A DNA stretch of 64,000 nucleotides from Staphylococcus taiwanensis. Lineage in GTDB: Bacteria > Bacillota > Bacilli > Staphylococcales > Staphylococcaceae. Both the position numbers and the translations under genes were made by a program. The stretch lies in the NCBI GenBank assembly GCA_020544305.1, contig CP058667.1:1984001-2048000 (forward strand), given 5' to 3'. The notes beneath the pieces were generated by a model. That model saw only the letters and a list, made by a program, of their open reading frames with translations, searched no databases and was not told where the DNA came from. This document shows, one piece after another, positions 21,932-56,763 of this stretch (within the stretch, counting starts at the first letter, position 1; the number at the start of each line of letters is the position of its first letter).

Positions 21932-22046
21932 TCTTTCTCTCATCTTCTAAAGTAAGTAACTTTATGTGAATTGGCACCATTTCTATAATTAGACGGTTGC
22001 CGGGCTTCATAGGGCACATCCCTCCACCTCTCTTGATAAGAGTTTT
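21932..22046 (-). promoter_or_regulatory. SAM riboswitch (S-box)
   Basis: On the minus strand CTCTTATCAAGAGAGGTGG, then GGAGGG, a GCCC and GAAGCCCGGCAACC reproduce the S-box core. The P1 helix is CTCTTATC (22037-22044) paired with GATGAGAG (21935-21942), a full 8 pairs with one wobble. The family binds S-adenosylmethionine and, when bound, favours the terminator at 21886-21925, shutting off metNPQ when methionine is ample. Confidence 0.93.
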
Positions 22047-35832: not shown

Positions 35833-36009
35833 ATGAAAAAAGTAGCATTTTTATTACTCTCAAGTTTTCTTGTATTAGGCGCGTGTAGTCATCATGATGA
35901 TTCAGTGAAAAACGTTAAAAAAAGTACGCATAAAAAGGACAACCCTAATGCACATAAAGATAAAGGCAACTCAGATCGTACTGACGGCAAAAAAATTGAT
36001 AAAAAATAA
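35833..36009 (+). CDS. Small lipoprotein
   Basis: A 58-residue lipoprotein. The signal MKKVAFLLLSSFLVLGAC ends in a lipobox (LGAC, Cys18), followed by a short His/Lys/Asp-rich tail (SHHDDSVKNVKKSTHKKDN). Its signal and the CSH start resemble the lipoprotein at 31.7 kb. AAAGGGTG lies before the ATG and a terminator follows. Function unknown. Confidence 0.7.
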   Translation: MKKVAFLLLSSFLVLGACSHHDDSVKNVKKSTHKKDNPNAHKDKGNSDRTDGKKIDKK

Positions 36010-36040
36010 TTAAAAAGCTAGCAATTATTTTGCTAAATTG

Positions 36041-36076
36041 ACAGGATACGAATTACAATTAACCTGTATCCTGTCG
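36041..36076. terminator. Bidirectional terminator
   Basis: GACAGGATAC pairs with GTATCCTGTC across a loop of about 15 bases, between the small lipoprotein and the converging GNAT remnant. Confidence 0.7.
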
Positions 36077-36080
36077 TTTG

Positions 36081-36526
36081 CTATATTAAATTTTTCACAA
36101 AGCCAAATGACTTTTTATCCAAACCACTATATTTATAAAAATGATGTGCAGTTCGTCTTTCTTCTTTTATCCCACTATTCAAAGTAAGAGCTTCACACTT
36201 CATTTTACGTGCTAAATTCTCACTTTCCTTAAGTAAAAGTGAACCATATCCATTTTTTCGATAATTGATATTAATAACAAATGCTAATATCCTCATATAT
36301 TCACCATTTTTTCGAAAAACAACATTTTACACATACCACTTAAGCCAATAATTTTATTATCCTTCAACAATAATAATAAATAATAGTCATCGCGATTATT
36401 TAATTTTTTTAATCTATCTTTTAACTCTTTTTTATTGGTAGGATATCCTATGTCTTCATATAATTTCTGTAAAGATTCTATTTGTTCTAAATCTTCATCT
36501 TTGAATAGTCGAGTAGTCAAATTCAT
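36081..36526 (-). pseudogene. GNAT acetyltransferase gene broken by a one-base frameshift
   Basis: Two overlapping frames encode the halves of one GNAT protein. The upstream half (36293-36526) ends KIIGLSGMCKMLFFEKMVNI and stops; the downstream half (36081-36296) begins MRILAFVININYRKNGYGSL with the acetyl-CoA loop. One extra A in the A6 run (T6 at 36307-36312 on the plus strand) would give FEKNGEYMRILAFV and one continuous frame of about 148 codons. It lies 12 bases after fosB in the same direction. Natural decay, phase variation or a sequencing error are all possible. Confidence 0.8.
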
Positions 36527-36538
36527 ACAATCACCATT

Positions 36539-36958
36539 TCACTTATAAAATATCATATGCTTTTTATCTTGTTTATAATAATTTAGTCTGTCTTGCAAAG
36601 TACCAGTGTGTAATTCTAATTTATGACCATCAGGATCTGTAAAATAAAGTGACTTTTTGTCTTTCATATCTCTCTTACGTCCTTTTAAAATATTCACCTT
36701 ATTATATTCAAGCCAACTATACCAATCTTCAAATTCTTGCTCTTCTATAGAGAACGCTATATGCGTATAGGAGTACTGAATTTCTTCACGAGGTATTCCT
36801 TCTTCTTGATTTAATGCTATCCATATTCCATTTAAATCAAGATAGGCTGTTGTGTTACCCTCAACTAAGAGTTTTGCTCGTAATATGTCTTTATAAAAAG
36901 ATATTGACTTTTGAAGATTACTTACTGAAAAACAAATATGGTTAAGTGCTTTAATCAT
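36539..36958 (-). CDS. fosB: FosB, fosfomycin bacillithiol transferase
   Basis: FosB is a metal-dependent thiol transferase that opens the epoxide of fosfomycin with bacillithiol. The 139-residue protein of the glyoxalase/VOC fold has the metal ligands His7 (ALNHICF), His66 (YSYTHIAF) and Glu115 (GHKLELHTG), plus Cys9 seen in staphylococcal FosB. The C-terminal RLNYYK segment is also typical. It is expected to give fosfomycin resistance. It lies 52 bases downstream of add. Confidence 0.95.
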
Positions 36959-37010
36959 AAATTATCCTCCTATAAATAGTTAACACAAATCCTTAATTTA
37001 TAAATTGAAA

Positions 37011-38000
37011 TTATTTCAATCTTTCTTTTAACACTTTTTTATCTTTTACATTAGCAAACGCATATTGCACCGCTTCATGATTAATACGTTTAATTTCATC
37101 TATACTGATCAAACCATTATTTAACAATGTTTGATATTCTTTCACTAAGTTTGTTTGCGTTACAACTCTATTGTCAGTATTAATCAAATACGGAATATCC
37201 ATCCTTTTCAATAAAGCTAAATCGATATCTTTAATATCATTAATCGCATTCGTTTGAATATTACTTAGCGGACAAATTTCTAATAAAGTATCTTTATTTT
37301 GAAAGTCATAGAATTGTTCTGTATCTTTAAAAATGGCTACACCATGACCAATCCGTTGTGCACCTAATTTTATTGAATCATGAATATTTTTTATACATCC
37401 GCATTCTCCAGCGTGTAATGTGATATTTAAATTATTCTCTTTAGCAAATGCTATAGCTGCTTCATGTTTCGGTATTGAATCATCTTCTTCCCCACCCGCT
37501 AAATCAACACCAACGATATATTGTTTTAATAGTTCTGTTGAGTGGATTTGTTTAAATATCTCGATATTTTCTTCATTTGAATGATGTTTCATACCACAAA
37601 CTATGATTCGGACCATGACATCCGTTTGGTCTTCAGCTTGTTGCGTACCTTTACATACAGCATGCAAGATATTATCTATGTTCATTCCCTTTTGCATATG
37701 AAATTTAGGTGCAAATCTTAATTCAATATATTTAATACCGTCTTTTTGAGCTTGTTTTGCAACGTCTACTACACTCTCAATTAGACTCTCTTCCGTTTGC
37801 ATGACTTTCAATATCTCATCGAAACAGCGTAAATATTCATCTAAACTTTCACATTGCTCATCTGCTGATATATTATCAAGATTAATGTTAATATTTTGTT
37901 TCTTTGCTTCCTTTTTTATAAATTCAACACTTACAGAGCCATCCAAATGACAATGTAGCTCAATTTTAGGTATAGCTATTAATGTATTCAAATCACACAT
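37011..38000 (-). CDS. add: Adenosine deaminase
   Basis: Adenosine deaminase converts adenosine to inosine for purine salvage. The 329-residue amidohydrolase has the metal motif IELHCHLDGSVSVEF near residue 15, the catalytic TLHAGECG (about 200), IGHGVAIF (about 222), CPLSNIQTNAI and the late INTDNRVVTQTNL (one aspartate as in many bacterial forms). SAM- or thioadenosine-specific relatives exist, so substrate range is inferred. fosB follows in the same direction. Confidence 0.9.
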   Translation of the reverse strand: MCDLNTLIAIPKIELHCHLDGSVSVEFIKKEAKKQNININLDNISADEQCESLDEYLRCFDEILKVMQTEESLIESVVDVAKQAQKDGIKYIELRFAPKFHMQKGMNIDNILHAVCKGTQQAEDQTDVMVRIIVCGMKHHSNEENIEIFKQIHSTELLKQYIVGVDLAGGEEDDSIPKHEAAIAFAKENNLNITLHAGECGCIKNIHDSIKLGAQRIGHGVAIFKDTEQFYDFQNKDTLLEICPLSNIQTNAINDIKDIDLALLKRMDIPYLINTDNRVVTQTNLVKEYQTLLNNGLISIDEIKRINHEAVQYAFANVKDKKVLKERLK

Positions 38001-38129
38001 TCCAATTCACCTGCTACTCAACAATTATATTGTTTGCATTATACAATATATATCTTAATTTTCAAATTTTTATTTTCCAAAAATAAATATAATACAGACT
38101 TCATTTGTTAATTCAAATCATTTTTCAGA

Positions 38130-38160
38130 AACAAAAAAGGGCTAATCAAAGCCCTTAAAA
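38130..38160 (-). terminator. Terminator of the MFS operon
   Basis: AAGGGC and GCCCTT form the stem around TAATCAAA; the minus strand continues TTTTTTGTTTC. Confidence 0.75.
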
Positions 38161-38179
38161 TGTTCATCTATTGAACGTC

Positions 38180-39556
38180 TTATTTAGATTTCAAACTATT
38201 GCCACCGAATATGGTCAATATCAAAATAGCGATAGCAATTATGGACGCGACAAAGCCTAAAGCATGTATCGCATACGTCAAGTTACTATCTTTAAATAAA
38301 ATACCAGTAAGTGTAGAAGATACAATCGCACCTATATACCCTGCTGTTCTTAATAATCCTGCTGACATACCAATAATAGATTTAGGTGCTTGATGGTAAA
38401 CTGCATTCTGATTCGCTAAATTGAGTAGTCCTTGCGGTAATCCAAATATAGCTGATAATACTATGAGTATCACTAGCGGTGTTGAACTATTGATAAATTG
38501 AAAACCAATCATAGTGATTAAAGCACCTAATGCACCTATATACAATTTAGCTCGAATCGATAATCGTGACCCTGATAATTGTGCCACAGTAATTCCAACT
38601 ATAAATTGAGGCAACATCATTAAACCAGCATGTGTCGGTGATAAGCCTCTATCTTCCTCTAACCATTGAACGTAACTATACAAAACACTATATGAAATCA
38701 GCATTGTAAGAAACATTCGAAGATAGGTATTATTTAGCACAATGTTATGACTTAATACTCTTAAATCGATAAATGGTTTTCTAGATTTTAATTCAAAATA
38801 GATAAAAATAATTAAACTTAACAAGCCTAGTAAAAATAACACCGCAGTTTTACGACTCGGTTCCATGAAGAATATCATCCAAGACGCTAACGTCATTGTA
38901 AATAATAGGATTCCGATAACGTCAACTTTGTCTTTCAATGCTTGTAATTTGTCTTTCACTACTATTTTCGGAAAATAAAGATAGCCAAAAACAAACGCAA
39001 GAACAGACAATGGTAAATTGACGATAAAAATAGATTTCCATCCACCGAAACCAATTAACAAACCACCTAGAGTTGGTCCAACAATCGCGATGATTTGGTT
39101 ACTTATCGCTAATATCGTCAGTATTGAACTTGGACTTTCTTTACCCGTACGATCAGCTTCATACTTAATCAAATACATGGCAGATGGATAACCTGCACAT
39201 GTTCCTATTCCGATTAAAAACCGGGCAAGTACTAGCCCATAAAATGATGGCGTAAATAGCGCAATTAAACTTGCTAAACCTACCAAACTTGTCGCAAATA
39301 AAAACAAACTTCGTGGTCCAAAAGTATCCACTAACTTTCCTATTACAGGCTGGCCAATACTTGTAGCCAAGTATAATGAGGAAATAAGCCATGCCGTTTG
39401 ATAAAACGGTACACCAAAGGCATGTGCAATAGGTACAAGCGCCACTGCAAGCATAGATGAGTTAATTGGATTCAAAATAGAACCTAATATCATGGGTGGA
39501 TATAACTTTGTATTAAACGTAGGTGCGGTTGAAGCGGTTGAATTAGAATTAGTCAC
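38180..39556 (-). CDS. MFS transporter, DHA2-type drug efflux family
   Basis: A 458-residue major facilitator with 12-14 hydrophobic spans. The motif-A region GQPVIGKLVDTFGPRSLFLF (about residue 68) and motif-C-like GPTLGGLLIGFGGWKSIFIV (about 160) mark a proton-driven exporter of the DHA2 group. The N-terminal ILGSILNPINSSMLAVALVP is also typical. Its start overlaps the end of the isochorismatase-like gene by 8 bases, so they are co-expressed. Substrate unknown. Confidence 0.85.
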   Translation of the reverse strand: MTNSNSTASTAPTFNTKLYPPMILGSILNPINSSMLAVALVPIAHAFGVPFYQTAWLISSLYLATSIGQPVIGKLVDTFGPRSLFLFATSLVGLASLIALFTPSFYGLVLARFLIGIGTCAGYPSAMYLIKYEADRTGKESPSSILTILAISNQIIAIVGPTLGGLLIGFGGWKSIFIVNLPLSVLAFVFGYLYFPKIVVKDKLQALKDKVDVIGILLFTMTLASWMIFFMEPSRKTAVLFLLGLLSLIIFIYFELKSRKPFIDLRVLSHNIVLNNTYLRMFLTMLISYSVLYSYVQWLEEDRGLSPTHAGLMMLPQFIVGITVAQLSGSRLSIRAKLYIGALGALITMIGFQFINSSTPLVILIVLSAIFGLPQGLLNLANQNAVYHQAPKSIIGMSAGLLRTAGYIGAIVSSTLTGILFKDSNLTYAIHALGFVASIIAIAILILTIFGGNSLKSK

Positions 39557-40109
39557 TCATGTCATCCCACTCTGATGTTGAGAGAACATCACCATATTTA
39601 GGGAAAATATCACGCGTTAAAAAGTGATGAACTTGTTCATCTCTATCCATCATAGCGTCTTTTAAAAATGTTAACTTATAGTCTTTATCACTAGCTTCTA
39701 CAGCAGTTGAAAGTACAACACCACTTGTCGCTACCCCTGTAAGCATTAAGTGATCAACTTGTAAGCCTCTTAATAACACCTCTAAATCACTTCCTGTAAA
39801 GGCGCTCACGCGTTTCTTAATAATAAAATGGTCGTTGGATTCAACATTTAAATCATCAATAATTTGTGTTTCCTTGTCGTCAACTGACATAGGTCTACCA
39901 CTATTTTTAATTTGATTAAAACGTTTATTATTAGATGAGATTTCACCATAATTTTTTGAAAAGGCGACTCTCACAAAAATAACCGGAATGCGCTTTGATC
40001 GAGCAACTGTTATGGCATCATTCGTTGCTTGAATTAACCCGTGTGTTTCAGCTAATGAATTCACAATACCATTTTGCATATCCATTACTAATAGTGCTTT
40101 TTTATTCAT
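39549..40109 (-). CDS. Isochorismatase-fold hydrolase
   Basis: A 186-residue isochorismatase-superfamily protein. The Asp of ALLVMDMQNGIVNS and the Lys of FIIKKRVSAFTGSDLE are in place. At the nucleophile position the sequence is LTGVATSGVVLSTAVEA, where nicotinamidases have GxxTxxCV; the Cys is Gly, as in the isochorismatase/PhzD branch. It may therefore not act as a cysteine hydrolase. ATG 40109 has AAAGGGAG 9 bases upstream. It is coupled to the efflux pump. Confidence 0.83.
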   Translation of the reverse strand: MNKKALLVMDMQNGIVNSLAETHGLIQATNDAITVARSKRIPVIFVRVAFSKNYGEISSNNKRFNQIKNSGRPMSVDDKETQIIDDLNVESNDHFIIKKRVSAFTGSDLEVLLRGLQVDHLMLTGVATSGVVLSTAVEASDKDYKLTFLKDAMMDRDEQVHHFLTRDIFPKYGDVLSTSEWDDMSD

Positions 40110-40240
40110 GTAAATACTCCCTTTCAATTAACAAATACATTTAAAAATCGTATCACATTAATTGAAAGAATTAAATTTATTAGTTTGTTTAACCATTTTG
40201 GACTTAAAAAAATTTAATGAAAGTGCTAATTTTAGAAAAT

Positions 40241-40356
40241 AAAAAACGTTGAAACGATTCGTTCCAACGTCTTGTCTACATTTATTGAAATTTGCATTTC
40301 AAATCCGATAATCAATGTATTTGTTTTAAAGTCCACGCACGACCGTTGACTAAAAA
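40241..40356 (-). ncRNA. Putative structured small RNA, unit A
   Basis: On the minus strand this unit holds the palindromic 20-mer (40331-40350), a UUGAAAU-GCAA-AUUUCAA hairpin with a GNRA loop (40285-40302) and an intrinsic terminator (40247-40269, ten pairs, then TTTTTT). The terminator's only non-Watson-Crick pair is a G-U on the minus strand and an A-C on the plus strand, which favours minus-strand transcription. No own -10 is seen; it begins right after unit B's terminator and may come from read-through or processing. No convincing ORF is present. Confidence 0.5.
40331..40350. repeat. Palindromic 20-mer, copy 1
   Basis: GTCCACGCACGACCGTTGAC: arms GTCCACG and CGTTGAC pair with one mismatch around the loop CACGAC. 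Confidence 0.8.
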
Positions 40357-40456
40357 GAGAGCAAGTCCTACCTGCTCTCTTTCCTAAGTTATTTAAAACT
40401 TATTCTTAGCTATGCAATGTATTTCGGTTTATAACGTCCACGCATTGTCGTTGACA
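40352..40456 (-). ncRNA. Putative structured small RNA, unit B
   Basis: Transcribed leftwards from a near-consensus promoter. The RNA would begin with the palindromic 20-mer (40436-40455), share the CGAAATACATTG-like segment with unit A, fold a CTAAG/CTTAG middle hairpin and end in the terminator AGAGAGCA/TGCTCTCT plus TTTTT (40355-40381). Length is about 105 bases. No ORF with a ribosome site is seen. Confidence 0.6.
40436..40455. repeat. Palindromic 20-mer, copy 2
   Basis: GTCCACGCATTGTCGTTGAC: same arms as copy 1, loop CATTGT. Confidence 0.8.
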
Positions 40457-40461
40457 TTTAT

Positions 40462-40489
40462 ATTATAACATTTTTATTAAATATGTCAA
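40462..40489 (-). promoter_or_regulatory. Consensus sigma-A promoter of unit B
   Basis: On the minus strand TTGACA (40484-40489), 16 bases, TATAAT (40462-40467). Both hexamers are perfect. The predicted start falls on the first bases of palindrome copy 2. The gap 40110-40556 otherwise holds units A and B and an inverted repeat GTTCATCCAA/TTGGATATGAAC at 40519-40546. Confidence 0.75.
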
Positions 40490-40556
40490 GATTAATAAAT
40501 TTAATATAATTTAGTTGTGTTCATCCAATATATTTTGGATATGAACATGTTGCTTA

Positions 40557-41573
40557 TCAAAAACGCTTAGTCCATGCTTTAAATAGCTTATTGTTTTGGA
40601 ACTTCACAGTATACATCGTGTATCTATTAATAGAATTTACGATATCATTTACAATCTTTGTATTAACATGCGATTTTAATAATTCGTCTATCTCTATTTT
40701 ACATTCATTATAAATTGTAGTGATATCAATAACATTTTGTACGTCTAATAGTTTTGTTATTTTCACTCTGCATTCAGCAATTAACATTTTATCAGCCTTT
40801 TCTTTGTCCATAATTTTTCTTTTTTGAATATTACGTGCTTCAGCCTCTTTTAAAAATTGCTGTCGTTTTAACTCTCGTTCTTTTCTTAATGCTTCTTGTT
40901 CTTTTTCTCTTTGAATACGTCTTTCTCGTTCTAGTTCTTCTAGATACGCAAGATATTTCTTTTTATGAAAATAATCAATCAAAGCAAAGACTTTCTGTTC
41001 GATGTTGGTGGGCAAAGCCATACTATACTTTTTAAAATCATTAATTAATTCAATATTCTTACTCGTAATAGGCTTTGATGAATTCGAATTAAATTCTTCC
41101 ACATCTAACTCAGAGATCGTATTCCACTCTTTATACATGTTTATCACTTTACGATGATACTCTGAATCATTCATCAATTTATCATGATTTAAGAGTACAT
41201 CATCCAACCAATCATCTAACAAGAACATATTCTTTCTAACCTGATAAGCAATACGATTCGGAATGCCACTATGTTCTTTAAAATGTTCAATCCCAAGTTT
41301 TATAATACTATCTTTTGACTTTGATCGTAGTATATATTGATACTTTAATTCTTTTCCGCATTCACAATATAACGGGTTATCATTACAACTCGTTCGGTAA
41401 TTTTCATTTACTTTAAAGTCGATAAGTTCCCACTCTTCTGAATGGCGATACATATCATTGATTAATATATTCTTTTTTCTGTATTTATAATACATAAACA
41501 GTATTTCTCTTTGGTTCTCAGTTAATTGACTGATTAAAGCATGTCTCTGTTTCTCGTTATTCACATATCTCAA
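40557..41573 (-). CDS. Orphan protein with coiled coil, beside tmRNA
   Basis: I do not recognise this 338-residue protein. Residues 1-60 are helical and open MRYVNNEKQRHALISQLTEN. A cysteine cluster TSCNDNPLYCECGKELKY lies near residue 85 and could bind a metal. A helical middle (FKEHSGIPNRIAYQVRKNMF) and a highly charged coiled coil at about 215-260 (LEELERERRIQREKEQEALR) precede a helical C-terminus. It is flanked by units B/A downstream and unit C upstream. The position next to ssrA suits an island remnant, but there is no integrase. Confidence 0.7.
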   Translation of the reverse strand: MRYVNNEKQRHALISQLTENQREILFMYYKYRKKNILINDMYRHSEEWELIDFKVNENYRTSCNDNPLYCECGKELKYQYILRSKSKDSIIKLGIEHFKEHSGIPNRIAYQVRKNMFLLDDWLDDVLLNHDKLMNDSEYHRKVINMYKEWNTISELDVEEFNSNSSKPITSKNIELINDFKKYSMALPTNIEQKVFALIDYFHKKKYLAYLEELERERRIQREKEQEALRKERELKRQQFLKEAEARNIQKRKIMDKEKADKMLIAECRVKITKLLDVQNVIDITTIYNECKIEIDELLKSHVNTKIVNDIVNSINRYTMYTVKFQNNKLFKAWTKRF

Positions 41574-41652
41574 ATAACCACCTCTTCTACTTATAAGGTT
41601 AACTTTAGTTCATTTCACATTAATCTGATGGTTGGATTTGTATGTTTGCATA

Positions 41653-41796
41653 TGTAAAAAAGAGATATGACTAATCACTCATTAATCATATCTCATTATC
41701 AACACTATGATATTCAATTATAATGCCTAGTCTCATAGCAGACGGCTACTACTGTACATGATTTTGTTTTTTAAAGTCCACGCATGGTCGTTGACT
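41653..41796 (-). ncRNA. Putative structured small RNA, unit C
   Basis: About 140 bases transcribed leftwards, upstream of the orphan gene. It begins with palindrome copy 3, has a GCCGTCT/AGACTAGGC middle hairpin, and ends in the strong terminator GAGATATGA/TCATATCTC followed by TTTTTT (41655-41694). The terminator lies before the orphan gene's start, so the unit is a separate short transcript. No ORF with a ribosome site is seen. Confidence 0.6.
41776..41795. repeat. Palindromic 20-mer, copy 3
   Basis: GTCCACGCATGGTCGTTGAC: same arms as the other copies, loop CATGGT. Confidence 0.8.
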
Positions 41797-41803
41797 TAAT
41801 TAT

Positions 41804-41832
41804 ATTATAATAATTTTATATAATAAATACAA
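41804..41832 (-). promoter_or_regulatory. Sigma-A-type promoter of unit C
   Basis: TTGTAT (41827-41832), 17 bases, TATAAT (41804-41809) on the minus strand, with the palindrome at the predicted start, the same geometry as unit B. Confidence 0.65.
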
Positions 41833-41871
41833 CATTTATATATTTTAACCTAGAAACGTTTAAATACAAAA

Positions 41872-41904
41872 CAAAAAGCCTACAACCACAAGGGTTGCAG
41901 GCTA
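41872..41904 (-). terminator. Terminator of ssrA
   Basis: AGCCTGCAACC and GGTTGTAGGCT pair around CTTGT, followed on the minus strand by TTTTTG. Confidence 0.85.
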
Positions 41905-41906
41905 CA

Positions 41907-42268
41907 TAGTGGAGACGGCGGGATTCGAACCCGCGTCCAGAGGTCCTGATACACACCTTTCTACGTGTGTAGTCTATTGATAAATTTCGCATAATAGTAA
42001 GCAACAGACAACCAGTATTATGCTAGTTTGATTGGATTTCATCTAAACAGACTTCAAACGGCAGTGTTTAGCATATCCTACTAGGGTTGAATCGCGTTAA
42101 CAGCACGTAGGAGATGCTGTTAGGCGATGCAGAGTGCTATTACGCAGCTACTGCGAAATTATTGTTTGATTTGTCAGTTATATTTACTGAAATGTGTTGA
42201 TGTCGGAGACAACCCTCCGACACGCTTAATGTGCTCGAGGGACCCCTGTCGAATCCAAAAACGCCCCC
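41907..42268 (-). ncRNA. ssrA: Transfer-messenger RNA
   Basis: tmRNA rescues stalled ribosomes by adding a degradation tag. The 5' end GGGGGCG pairs with CGTCTCC at the 3' end to make the acceptor stem. The T arm GGGTTCGAATCCC and the 5' ATTCGACAGGGGTCCC are diagnostic. The open tag frame encodes DKSNNNFAVAA then TAA TAG, which I recall from S. epidermidis-type tmRNAs; S. aureus has G in place of D. The 3' CCA appears not to be fully encoded. It follows smpB, its protein partner. Confidence 0.95.
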
Positions 42269-42336
42269 GAAATAATATTAGATACGTTTAGTATATAACA
42301 ACCCCTTAAGGTATCATATACAAACGCAGTACTTGA

Positions 42337-42380
42337 TTGAACTGAGAAGTTGCTAATATATAGCGCTTCTCAGTTCTAAT
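42337..42380 (-). terminator. Hairpin between smpB and ssrA
   Basis: AACTGAGAAG pairs with CTTCTCAGTT across a loop of about 20 bases. No T run follows, so it may be a processing or partial stop signal. The rest of 42269-42510 has the ssrA promoter region but no gene. Confidence 0.45.
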
Positions 42381-42510
42381 CATTCTTGCGAGATTGAGAT
42401 GATGCACTCGAGTAGAATGTCACCCCAATCGCTAACCAACGTATCAGTTAATTCACAACATCAGTTATCATACCAAATAGCGACCAATTAAGCAACAAAC
42501 GCGCTTACGC

Positions 42511-56621: not shown

Positions 56622-56637
56622 TATTATAATAGACATA

Positions 56638-56763
56638 TAAAAGGCCCATACGTTTCTCGCATGGGCTACTACTAAAGGGAGTCAAAATTGACCTTCGTTT
56701 GTATATTTTATGGGGTATACTCATTTAACTAAAAGATGTTGAAATCATCTATAGCGAAGGTAC
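56638..56763 (-). ncRNA. rsaH: Probable sRNA RsaH
   Basis: A leftward RNA of about 125 bases is suggested by a TATAAT (56770-56775) and an intrinsic terminator GCCCATGCG...CGTATGGGC followed by CTTTTATATG (56641-56666). It folds several hairpins (ACCTTCG/CGAAGGT, GATGATTTCAACATC, GTCAATTTTGAC) and has the C-rich TCCC and ACCCC stretches of the RsaE/F/H group. As I recall, RsaH in S. aureus lies next to this epimerase gene, near clpP. The -35 is poor. The gap 56764-56921 holds nothing else I can name. Confidence 0.65.

What the first reader, a model, noticed from the sequence alone, without database searches (positions are those of the whole stretch)
40241..41832. Three homologous palindrome-led short transcription units around an orphan gene beside tmRNA
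Units A, B and C, all leftward, share a 20-bp imperfect palindrome (GTCCACG-N6-CGTTGAC on the plus strand), a similar AT-rich follow-on, a middle hairpin and an intrinsic terminator. B and C have good sigma-A promoters placing the palindrome at the transcript start. No ORFs with ribosome sites are seen in them. They flank a 338-codon unknown gene downstream of ssrA, a frequent integration site. It could be a family of small RNAs (antitoxin-like, anti-phage or regulatory) working with that protein, or operator-controlled decoys. This does not match any system I know.
Basis: partly seen in the sequence, partly recalled or inferred. Interest (0 to 1): 0.82.

Follow-up and report, generated by a model that had tools for sequence, protein, structure and literature searches.

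The report
SprC-family small RNAs beside tmRNA
Next to the tmRNA gene of this Staphylococcus lie three related short units, one matching the known Staphylococcus aureus regulatory RNA SprC and two sharing only its front end; they are likely short regulatory RNAs of a wider staphylococcal family, and probably not partners of the protein gene lying between them.

Summary
In detail: the palindrome occurs three times in the window, 0.11 expected. It is not an unknown system. Unit C matches SprC (RF02890, 153.6 bits, cut-off 100), a SarA-repressed S. aureus small RNA. A and B match SprC only in the first ~45 nt, below cut-off. A fourth copy, D, lies elsewhere in the genome. The family is in 10 of 84 Staphylococcus genomes and in no other of 14 genera searched. 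The 338-aa protein is in 3 of 84: the family does without it, though the ssrA-side block always carries it. Two points look new. (1) Varying pairs suggest two H-type pseudoknots where Rfam draws nested helices: the second well supported, the first moderately. (2) 22 of 23 members lie downstream of a tRNA or tmRNA gene on the same strand, at three different sites; at two of them inserted mobile DNA is seen between gene and RNA. Likely function: base-pairing regulation, inferred from SprC. The published atl target is not supported in this species group.

The parts
41661..41795 (-). Unit C: SprC homologue (5' module, second domain, terminator)
   Evidence: Rfam RF02890 153.6 bits at 41661-41800, gathering 100
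41804..41832 (-). Promoter of C: TTGTAT-17-TATAAT, 8 nt before the hairpin
   Evidence: read from the sequence; perfect -10, weak -35; the scripted scan prefers an overlapping TATAAT 3 nt before the hairpin, the scan lists another site
41756..41795 (-). C 5' module: hairpin GUCAACG-ACCAUG-CGUGGAC, A-rich linker, CAUGU able to pair with the loop (proposed pseudoknot 1)
41704..41750 (-). C second domain: GCC-GUCU/AGAC-GGC stem whose loop GCUAUGA can pair with UCAUAGU (proposed pseudoknot 2)
41662..41694 (-). Terminator of C
40355..40455 (-). Unit B: 5' module, short hairpin, terminator hairpin 40355-40381
   Evidence: sub-threshold RF02890 28.5 bits; own 5'-module model 66.3 bits (B was in the training set)
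40462..40489 (-). Promoter of B: TTGACA-16-TATAAT
   Evidence: 12/12 match with TG before the -10
40243..40350 (-). Unit A: 5' module, hairpin 40277-40319, terminator 40243-40273; no promoter of its own
   Evidence: sub-threshold RF02890 35.2 bits
40557..41573 (-). 338-aa orphan protein gene between C and B; probable bystander
41909..42268 (-). ssrA (tmRNA); own terminator at 41877-41903; its 3' end is where prophage contigs stop matching

Best explanation
Unit C matches the S. aureus small-RNA family SprC and units A and B share its 5' module, and the three are predicted to be short non-coding RNAs that likely act by base-pairing with mRNAs rather than through the neighbouring protein. Shown by calls: the SprC match of C; the shared 5' module; a fourth copy (D) behind a tRNA-Ser; no match outside Staphylococcus in the order; the placement behind tRNA or tmRNA genes. 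Inferred: B and C are made from their own sigma-A promoters and end at their own terminators, while A is made by read-through of B's terminator or by processing. Inferred: each RNA starts at or within a few nt of the palindrome, which folds as a 5' hairpin whose loop pairs with a downstream CAUUG-like motif (pseudoknot 1; doubtful in A). C and D add a second pseudoknot (S1 GCC../..GGC, S2 CUAUGA/UCAUAG) with a nearly invariant AU-rich linker AUAAUUGAAUA. Inferred: the 5' pseudoknot protects the RNA's end, and the linker is the pairing seed; in S. aureus-like genomes the linker has a 9-nt match to codons 4-7 of atl, the published SprC target. The ancestral site is probably behind the tRNA-Ser(GGA) cluster, and the ssrA copies were probably placed by DNA that targets tRNA/tmRNA 3' ends.
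For: SprC model: C 153.6 bits vs cut-off 100; A 35.2 and B 28.5, same strand. RF02890 in 10 of 84 genus genomes, above cut-off in 5; 0 of 14 controls. Model of the 5' module: 23 members in the same 10 genomes (21 were in its training set) plus one weak match, G038, E 0.045, taken as chance; in the order 10 of 157 genomes, 1 of 14 genera. A -10 of at least 5/6 ends 3-14 nt before the hairpin in 20 of 20 members that are not A copies; the 3 A copies have 3-4/6 (no chance control). Pair counts, 5' module (18 distinct rows): 91.9% of cells paired, 4 pairs changed on both sides, 0 of 500 shuffles as high, best slid control 51.3%. Loop-to-downstream helix alone: 93.3% paired (2 of 500 shuffles), covariation score reached by 1 of 500. 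Second-domain S2: 98.9% of cells in 13 members against 66.7% for Rfam's competing outer helix. Two divergent members (G062) can form the same topology with other letters (loop helix of 10 nt, 22 of 2000 shuffles; 6 nt, 96 of 2000). A's terminator stem differs from G008/G032 by paired changes (by eye). 22 of 23 members lie behind a tRNA/tmRNA gene on the same strand. Literature passages: SarA represses sprC (PMC8510525); SprC blocks atl translation (PMC9266662).
Against: No expression data for this species. A survey of strain HG003 left SprC out of its list of bona fide sRNAs, among RNAs with antisense expression or likely in type I toxin-antitoxin pairs (PMC5826253, passage). Predicted pairing with atl is unremarkable outside S. 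aureus-like genomes and G080: for the C/D-type members of G000, G008, G032, G010 and G023, 85 to 138 of 138 background start sites score as well, and the longest Watson-Crick match is 5-7 nt in G008, G032, G010, G020, G023 against 9 nt in G004, G006, G080. Even there the duplex energy of the linker with atl is ordinary (rank 49-56 of 262). No perfect 13-14-nt target site shared by the family emerged. Pseudoknot 1: in the loop-helix count only one pair changes on both sides, which 496 of 500 shuffles also reach; single sequences are matched by about 10-19% of shuffles in 6 of 9 tests, and A (90%), SprC (66%) and G080_2 (26%) give no support; A's MFE pairs the CAUUG stretch elsewhere. Pseudoknot 2: the MFE of C draws a nested outer helix as Rfam does, that of SprC uses S2 without S1, so S1 and S2 may be alternatives; Rfam's outer helix also beats 499 of 500 shuffles on covariation score. 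Shuffle controls do not correct for relatedness. The ssrA block always carries the 338-aa gene (3 of 3 genomes).
Confidence: 0.78

Rival explanations
1. RNA-protein pair: A, B and C are antitoxin-like or guide RNAs of the 338-aa protein (type III toxin-antitoxin-like or a defence system).
For: The ssrA-side block A-B-gene-C is present in all 3 genomes that have the protein and aligned whole or nearly whole in 10 of 16 viral contigs. The protein has a CxCG motif and is of unknown function.
Against: 7 of the 10 genomes with the RNA family lack the protein, the S. aureus-like ones among them. No PADLOC match, no Pfam/PHROG/NCBIfam match above cut-off, no PDB fold match at E<=0.001. The RNAs have terminators of their own and are not a repeat array in front of the gene.
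Confidence: 0.08
2. The palindrome is a DNA operator for a repressor that controls short leader transcripts (decoys or attenuators of the downstream gene).
For: It sits at the predicted +1 of B and C. C ends ~75 nt before the ribosome site of the 338-aa gene (by eye), and D lies upstream of a menE-like gene on the same strand.
Against: A keeps the palindrome with no promoter-like site in 3 of 3 genomes. Stem changes are paired, and loop and downstream motif change together, which a dimer-bound DNA site would not need. In G080 the downstream gene is ~770 nt away. The units have terminators of their own.
Confidence: 0.1
3. The conserved domains bind a protein or small ligand (structured decoy RNA) rather than pairing with mRNAs; the sequence is conserved beyond what base-pairing needs.
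For: Stem letters and linkers are nearly invariant (46 of 120 columns invariant in 13 members). H-type layout with A-rich third loop in both domains resembles ligand-binding pseudoknots (recalled). atl pairing is not conserved.
Against: S. aureus SprC has a published mRNA target (PMC9266662, passage). No partner is known or was searched for here.
Confidence: 0.2

Closest known systems
SprC (srn_3610, Teg10; Rfam RF02890), S. aureus
   Same: C matches the whole model above the curated cut-off; same 5' hairpin and GUAGCC..CUAGGC..AUAAUUGAAUAUCAUAG core; -10 and terminator.
   Different: Lies behind ssrA, not in the genomic island beside lukE; different terminator stem; atl pairing not predicted. 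Pair counts favour a pseudoknot over Rfam's outer helix.
Short type seen as A (also G032_E and G020_1); no published name known to me
   Same: Same 5' module as SprC; the three A copies, G032_E and G020_1 share a second hairpin GGAUUUGAAAU..AUUUCAA, with one mismatch in G032_A.
   Different: No second pseudoknot; far below the Rfam cut-off. My paper searches were by SprC-related names and species, so an unnamed report of this type could be missed.
H-type pseudoknot elements (frameshift sites, preQ1/SAM-II riboswitches; recalled)
   Same: Stem, very short first loop, second helix from the loop, A-rich third loop.
   Different: At the 5' end of stand-alone RNAs with terminators; no Rfam riboswitch match there.

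Membership tests
SprC RF02890 (unit C) | score above the Rfam gathering score over the full model | tested here: met
   153.6 vs 100, model 1-153
SprC RF02890 (units A, B) | score above the Rfam gathering score | tested here: not met
   35.2 and 28.5 bits; alignment good only in the first ~45 nt. Filed as relatives sharing the 5' module, not as SprC.
SprC | atl mRNA as pairing target | tested here: inconclusive
   G004, G006 and G080: 9-nt match to atl codons 4-7 (9, 9 and 5 of 262 background sites as good, but duplex energy rank 49-56 of 262); G008 and G032: 5 nt. The own-genome atl was not scored; the G032 atl stood in for it.
SprC | location in the genomic island next to lukE | tested here: not met
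   A-C behind ssrA; D and copies in 8 other genomes, S. aureus-like G006 included, lie behind the tRNA-Ser(GGA) cluster
SprC | expression and repression by SarA | not testable with these tools
   published for S. aureus (PMC8510525, passages); no RNA data here
H-type pseudoknot, second domain | both helices pair across relatives, with paired changes, and cross each other | tested here: met
   S2 98.9% of cells, 2 pairs changed on both sides (22 of 500 shuffles as many); S1 97.8%, 1 pair. That both form at once was not tested, and MFE does not show it.
H-type pseudoknot, 5' module | loop pairs with downstream motif across relatives | tested here: inconclusive
   93.3% of cells, one pair A-U/C-G/U-G, score reached by 1 of 500 shuffles; weak in single sequences and failing in A
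Type III toxin-antitoxin | tandem RNA repeats read through into an endoribonuclease toxin gene | tested here: not met
   separate units with terminators; no PADLOC match and no PDB match at E<=0.001 for the protein

The most novel reading that the evidence does not exclude
SprC is not a pathogenicity-island RNA by origin but one branch of an old staphylococcal family of double-pseudoknot RNAs that spreads between, and is kept at, the 3' ends of tRNA and tmRNA genes where prophages and islands integrate; the pseudoknots may tie these RNAs to the coming and going of integrated elements.
Probability: 0.2. Interest if true: 0.7.

Novelty: new variant of a known kind. Interest (0 to 1): 0.48.

Why it matters
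SprC is studied as a virulence-linked RNA of an S. aureus island. If it belongs to a chromosomal family present in about ten species, with paralogues and a pseudoknot fold, then its origin, structure model and conserved function need revising, and commensal or laboratory staphylococci become usable models. A shared 5' module with different bodies also gives a direct test of what the module does.

Tried and rejected
Partner-protein idea: tested by co-occurrence and by family, fold and homologue searches; not supported. DNA-operator-only idea: disfavoured by A and by paired changes. Conserved perfect target sites: two 13-14-nt complements searched in 10 genomes gave 28 matches, 17 of them the RNAs themselves; of the other 11 none lies at a start site with a ribosome-site-like motif, and the only shared sites are two between the close relatives G010 and G023. 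atl as a common target: not supported outside S. aureus-like genomes and G080; duplexfold with long interior loops is a crude measure. A small peptide starting in the loop (NUG-CGU-GGA): rejected by eye, as reading lengths differ between members and no ribosome site precedes it. Direct repeat of the ssrA 3' end bounding the block: none listed (repeats of 16 nt or more in 36000-42400). Plasmid and phage collections: only a 53-nt and a 109-nt match. The loop tests were on 16 pieces that I chose (7 for the second domain, 9 for the first), of which G020_2's second domain (263 of 2000) is also weak. Papers: PMC8905650, PMC5826253, PMC9266662, PMC5496865, PMC8510525, PMC3053349, PMC4994353 and PMC2873960 were seen as passages only; all others as search listings. 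The two papers on the SprC-atl interaction and on the SarA footprints are not held and are cited through others. Labels from memory, not from a call: menE-like, endolysin-like, leukocidin neighbours, S. aureus-like for G004/G006, comparison with riboswitch pseudoknots.

Full report
What is there. The 20-nt imperfect palindrome lies at 40331-40350, 40436-40455 and 41776-41795 and nowhere else in the window with up to two mismatches; shuffles expect 0.11. All three units read leftward. B has a perfect promoter with its -10 ending 6 nt before the palindrome. C has a perfect -10 and a weak -35. A has none and starts just behind B's terminator. All three fold better than shuffled sequence. ssrA (41909-42268) has its own terminator at 41877-41903, upstream of C's promoter, so C looks like a separate unit.

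What it is. Rfam calls C SprC, 153.6 bits over the whole model (cut-off 100). With a permissive threshold A (35.2 bits, E 0.005) and B (28.5 bits, E 0.1) match the same family, well only over the first ~45 nt; the other four rows of that search are weak matches to unrelated families. The own genome has one more copy, D, at G000:C1:1090142-1090276 (60.7 bits). Across 84 genus genomes RF02890 is found in 10, above cut-off in 5. A model built from the 5' module (57 alignment columns) finds 23 members in the same 10 genomes, 21 of which trained it; a further match in G038 (E 0.045) looks like chance. In 157 genomes of the order only this genus has it. Named species with an exact palindrome are S. 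caledonicus, S. croceilyticus, S. borealis and S. devriesei; two MAGs of other phyla also match, taken as chance.

Species. The 338-aa protein is 96% identical to one named S. haemolyticus, and the block is 95.9% identical to S. borealis over 1643 nt, so the window comes from the S. haemolyticus group. The record itself is unnamed.

Architecture. The shared part is GUCAACG-loop-CGUGGAC, an A-rich linker and CAUUG or a variant. In 18 distinct sequences the hairpin and the loop-to-CAUUG helix pair in 91.9% of cells; four pairs change on both sides; no shuffle does as well and slid controls reach 51.3% at most. The loop helix alone pairs in 93.3% and one pair runs A-U (10), C-G (5), U-G (1), 2 unpaired; that a single pair changes on both sides is itself usual in shuffles (496 of 500), the score is not (1 of 500). 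Single sequences do not prove it: six of nine tested are matched by about 10-19% of shuffles, and A, SprC and G080_2 by more. I call it probable, not shown, and unlikely in A, whose CAUUG pairs elsewhere in the MFE.

The second domain (C, D, SprC and others, 13 members) has a stem GCC-GUCU/AGAC-GGC or GCC-AGCC/GGCU-GGC whose loop CUAUGA pairs with UCAUAG beyond an AU-rich linker. That helix pairs in 98.9% of cells with two pairs changed on both sides. Rfam's competing outer helix pairs in 66.7%; its covariation score beats 499 of 500 shuffles, but one slid version scores the same. In single sequences the loop helix is matched by 1.5-3% of shuffles in C, D, SprC and G010, and 13% in G020_2; two divergent members in G062 can form the same topology with other letters (1% and 5%). 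The two helices cross, so the domain is an H-type pseudoknot or a switch. MFE, which cannot draw pseudoknots, gives the nested outer helix for C, only the first stem for D and only the second helix for SprC. The A copies, G032_E and G020_1 instead share a simple hairpin GGAUUUGAAAU..AUUUCAA, with one mismatch in G032_A.

Place. All 23 members were looked at. 19 lie downstream of a tRNA or tmRNA gene on the same strand, at 100-500 nt in 11, 1.0-1.6 kb in 5 and 2.6-2.7 kb in 3. The three ssrA-side copies of G008 lie 14-16 kb behind ssrA on the same strand, with about 14 kb of extra DNA between (ssrA at C4:157893-158254; no tmRNA nearer). G004 has no tRNA in the 12 kb fetched. Three sites occur: the Met-Asp-Phe-His-Gly-Asn-Glu-Ser(GGA) cluster, Asn-Ser(GCT) in G080, and ssrA. 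In G010 a tyrosine integrase gene (PF00589, E 5e-20) lies between tRNA-Ser and the RNA; in G006 a DUF6978 and a DUF1828/1829 gene do. In 11 of 16 viral contigs the match to the window stops at 41923-41924, at the ssrA 3' end, and no tmRNA is found in those 11 pieces, as expected for prophages inserted there. In S. aureus, SprC was missing from one group of sequence types said to lack the island, ST398 excepted (PMC4994353, passage), yet relatives sit at the same tRNA-Ser in other species. The family is therefore probably older than the island; I did not search those genomes for the island itself.

Function. In S. aureus SarA represses sprC (PMC8510525) and SprC blocks atl translation (PMC9266662); one survey left SprC out of its bona fide list because of antisense or toxin-antitoxin-like signals (PMC5826253). 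UAAUUGAAU in the linker of the second domain is complementary to AUUCAAUUA in atl codons 4-7 of G004, G006 and G080 (9, 9 and 5 of 262 background sites have as long a match), but the duplex energy is ordinary (rank 49-56 of 262), and the match is only 5 nt in G008 and G032. Whole-RNA duplex scores rank 14 and 19 of 138 in the S. aureus-like genomes and 38-138 for the other 16 RNAs. So base-pairing is the leading mechanism by relation to SprC, with species-specific targets likely; the conserved 5' module would serve stability or a common partner. These steps are inference.

The protein gene. 338 aa, CECG motif, long helix; in 3 of 84 genus genomes; one close and two distant relatives in the large protein database; no family or defence match above cut-off, no solved fold match at E<=0.001. 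The distant relative P0003 matches DUF3895. In the 3 genomes the ssrA block is complete, so a local link is not excluded, but the RNA family does without the protein in 7 of 10.

Verdict. A known RNA in a new host and place, plus new paralogues and a revised fold. Interesting for staphylococcal RNA biology, not a new kind of system.

Noticed in passing
G000:C1 ~1872112-1872508 and from ~1872467 (L114): In the window's own genome the atl reading frame appears split between two frames near its start; real or an assembly error, not resolved.
   Followed up: no
window 41909-41924: The ssrA 3' end looks like a prophage attachment site: 11 of 16 viral contigs stop matching the window at 41923-41924, and G008 has about 14 kb of extra DNA between ssrA and unit C.
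   Followed up: partly
   Followed up: partly
L121: The second G080 copy lies behind Asn-Ser(GCT) tRNAs with a degenerate 5' hairpin but a kept second domain.
   Followed up: partly
window 56637-56763 (-) and 21937-22042 (-): RsaH small RNA and a SAM riboswitch, both above Rfam cut-off.
   Followed up: no
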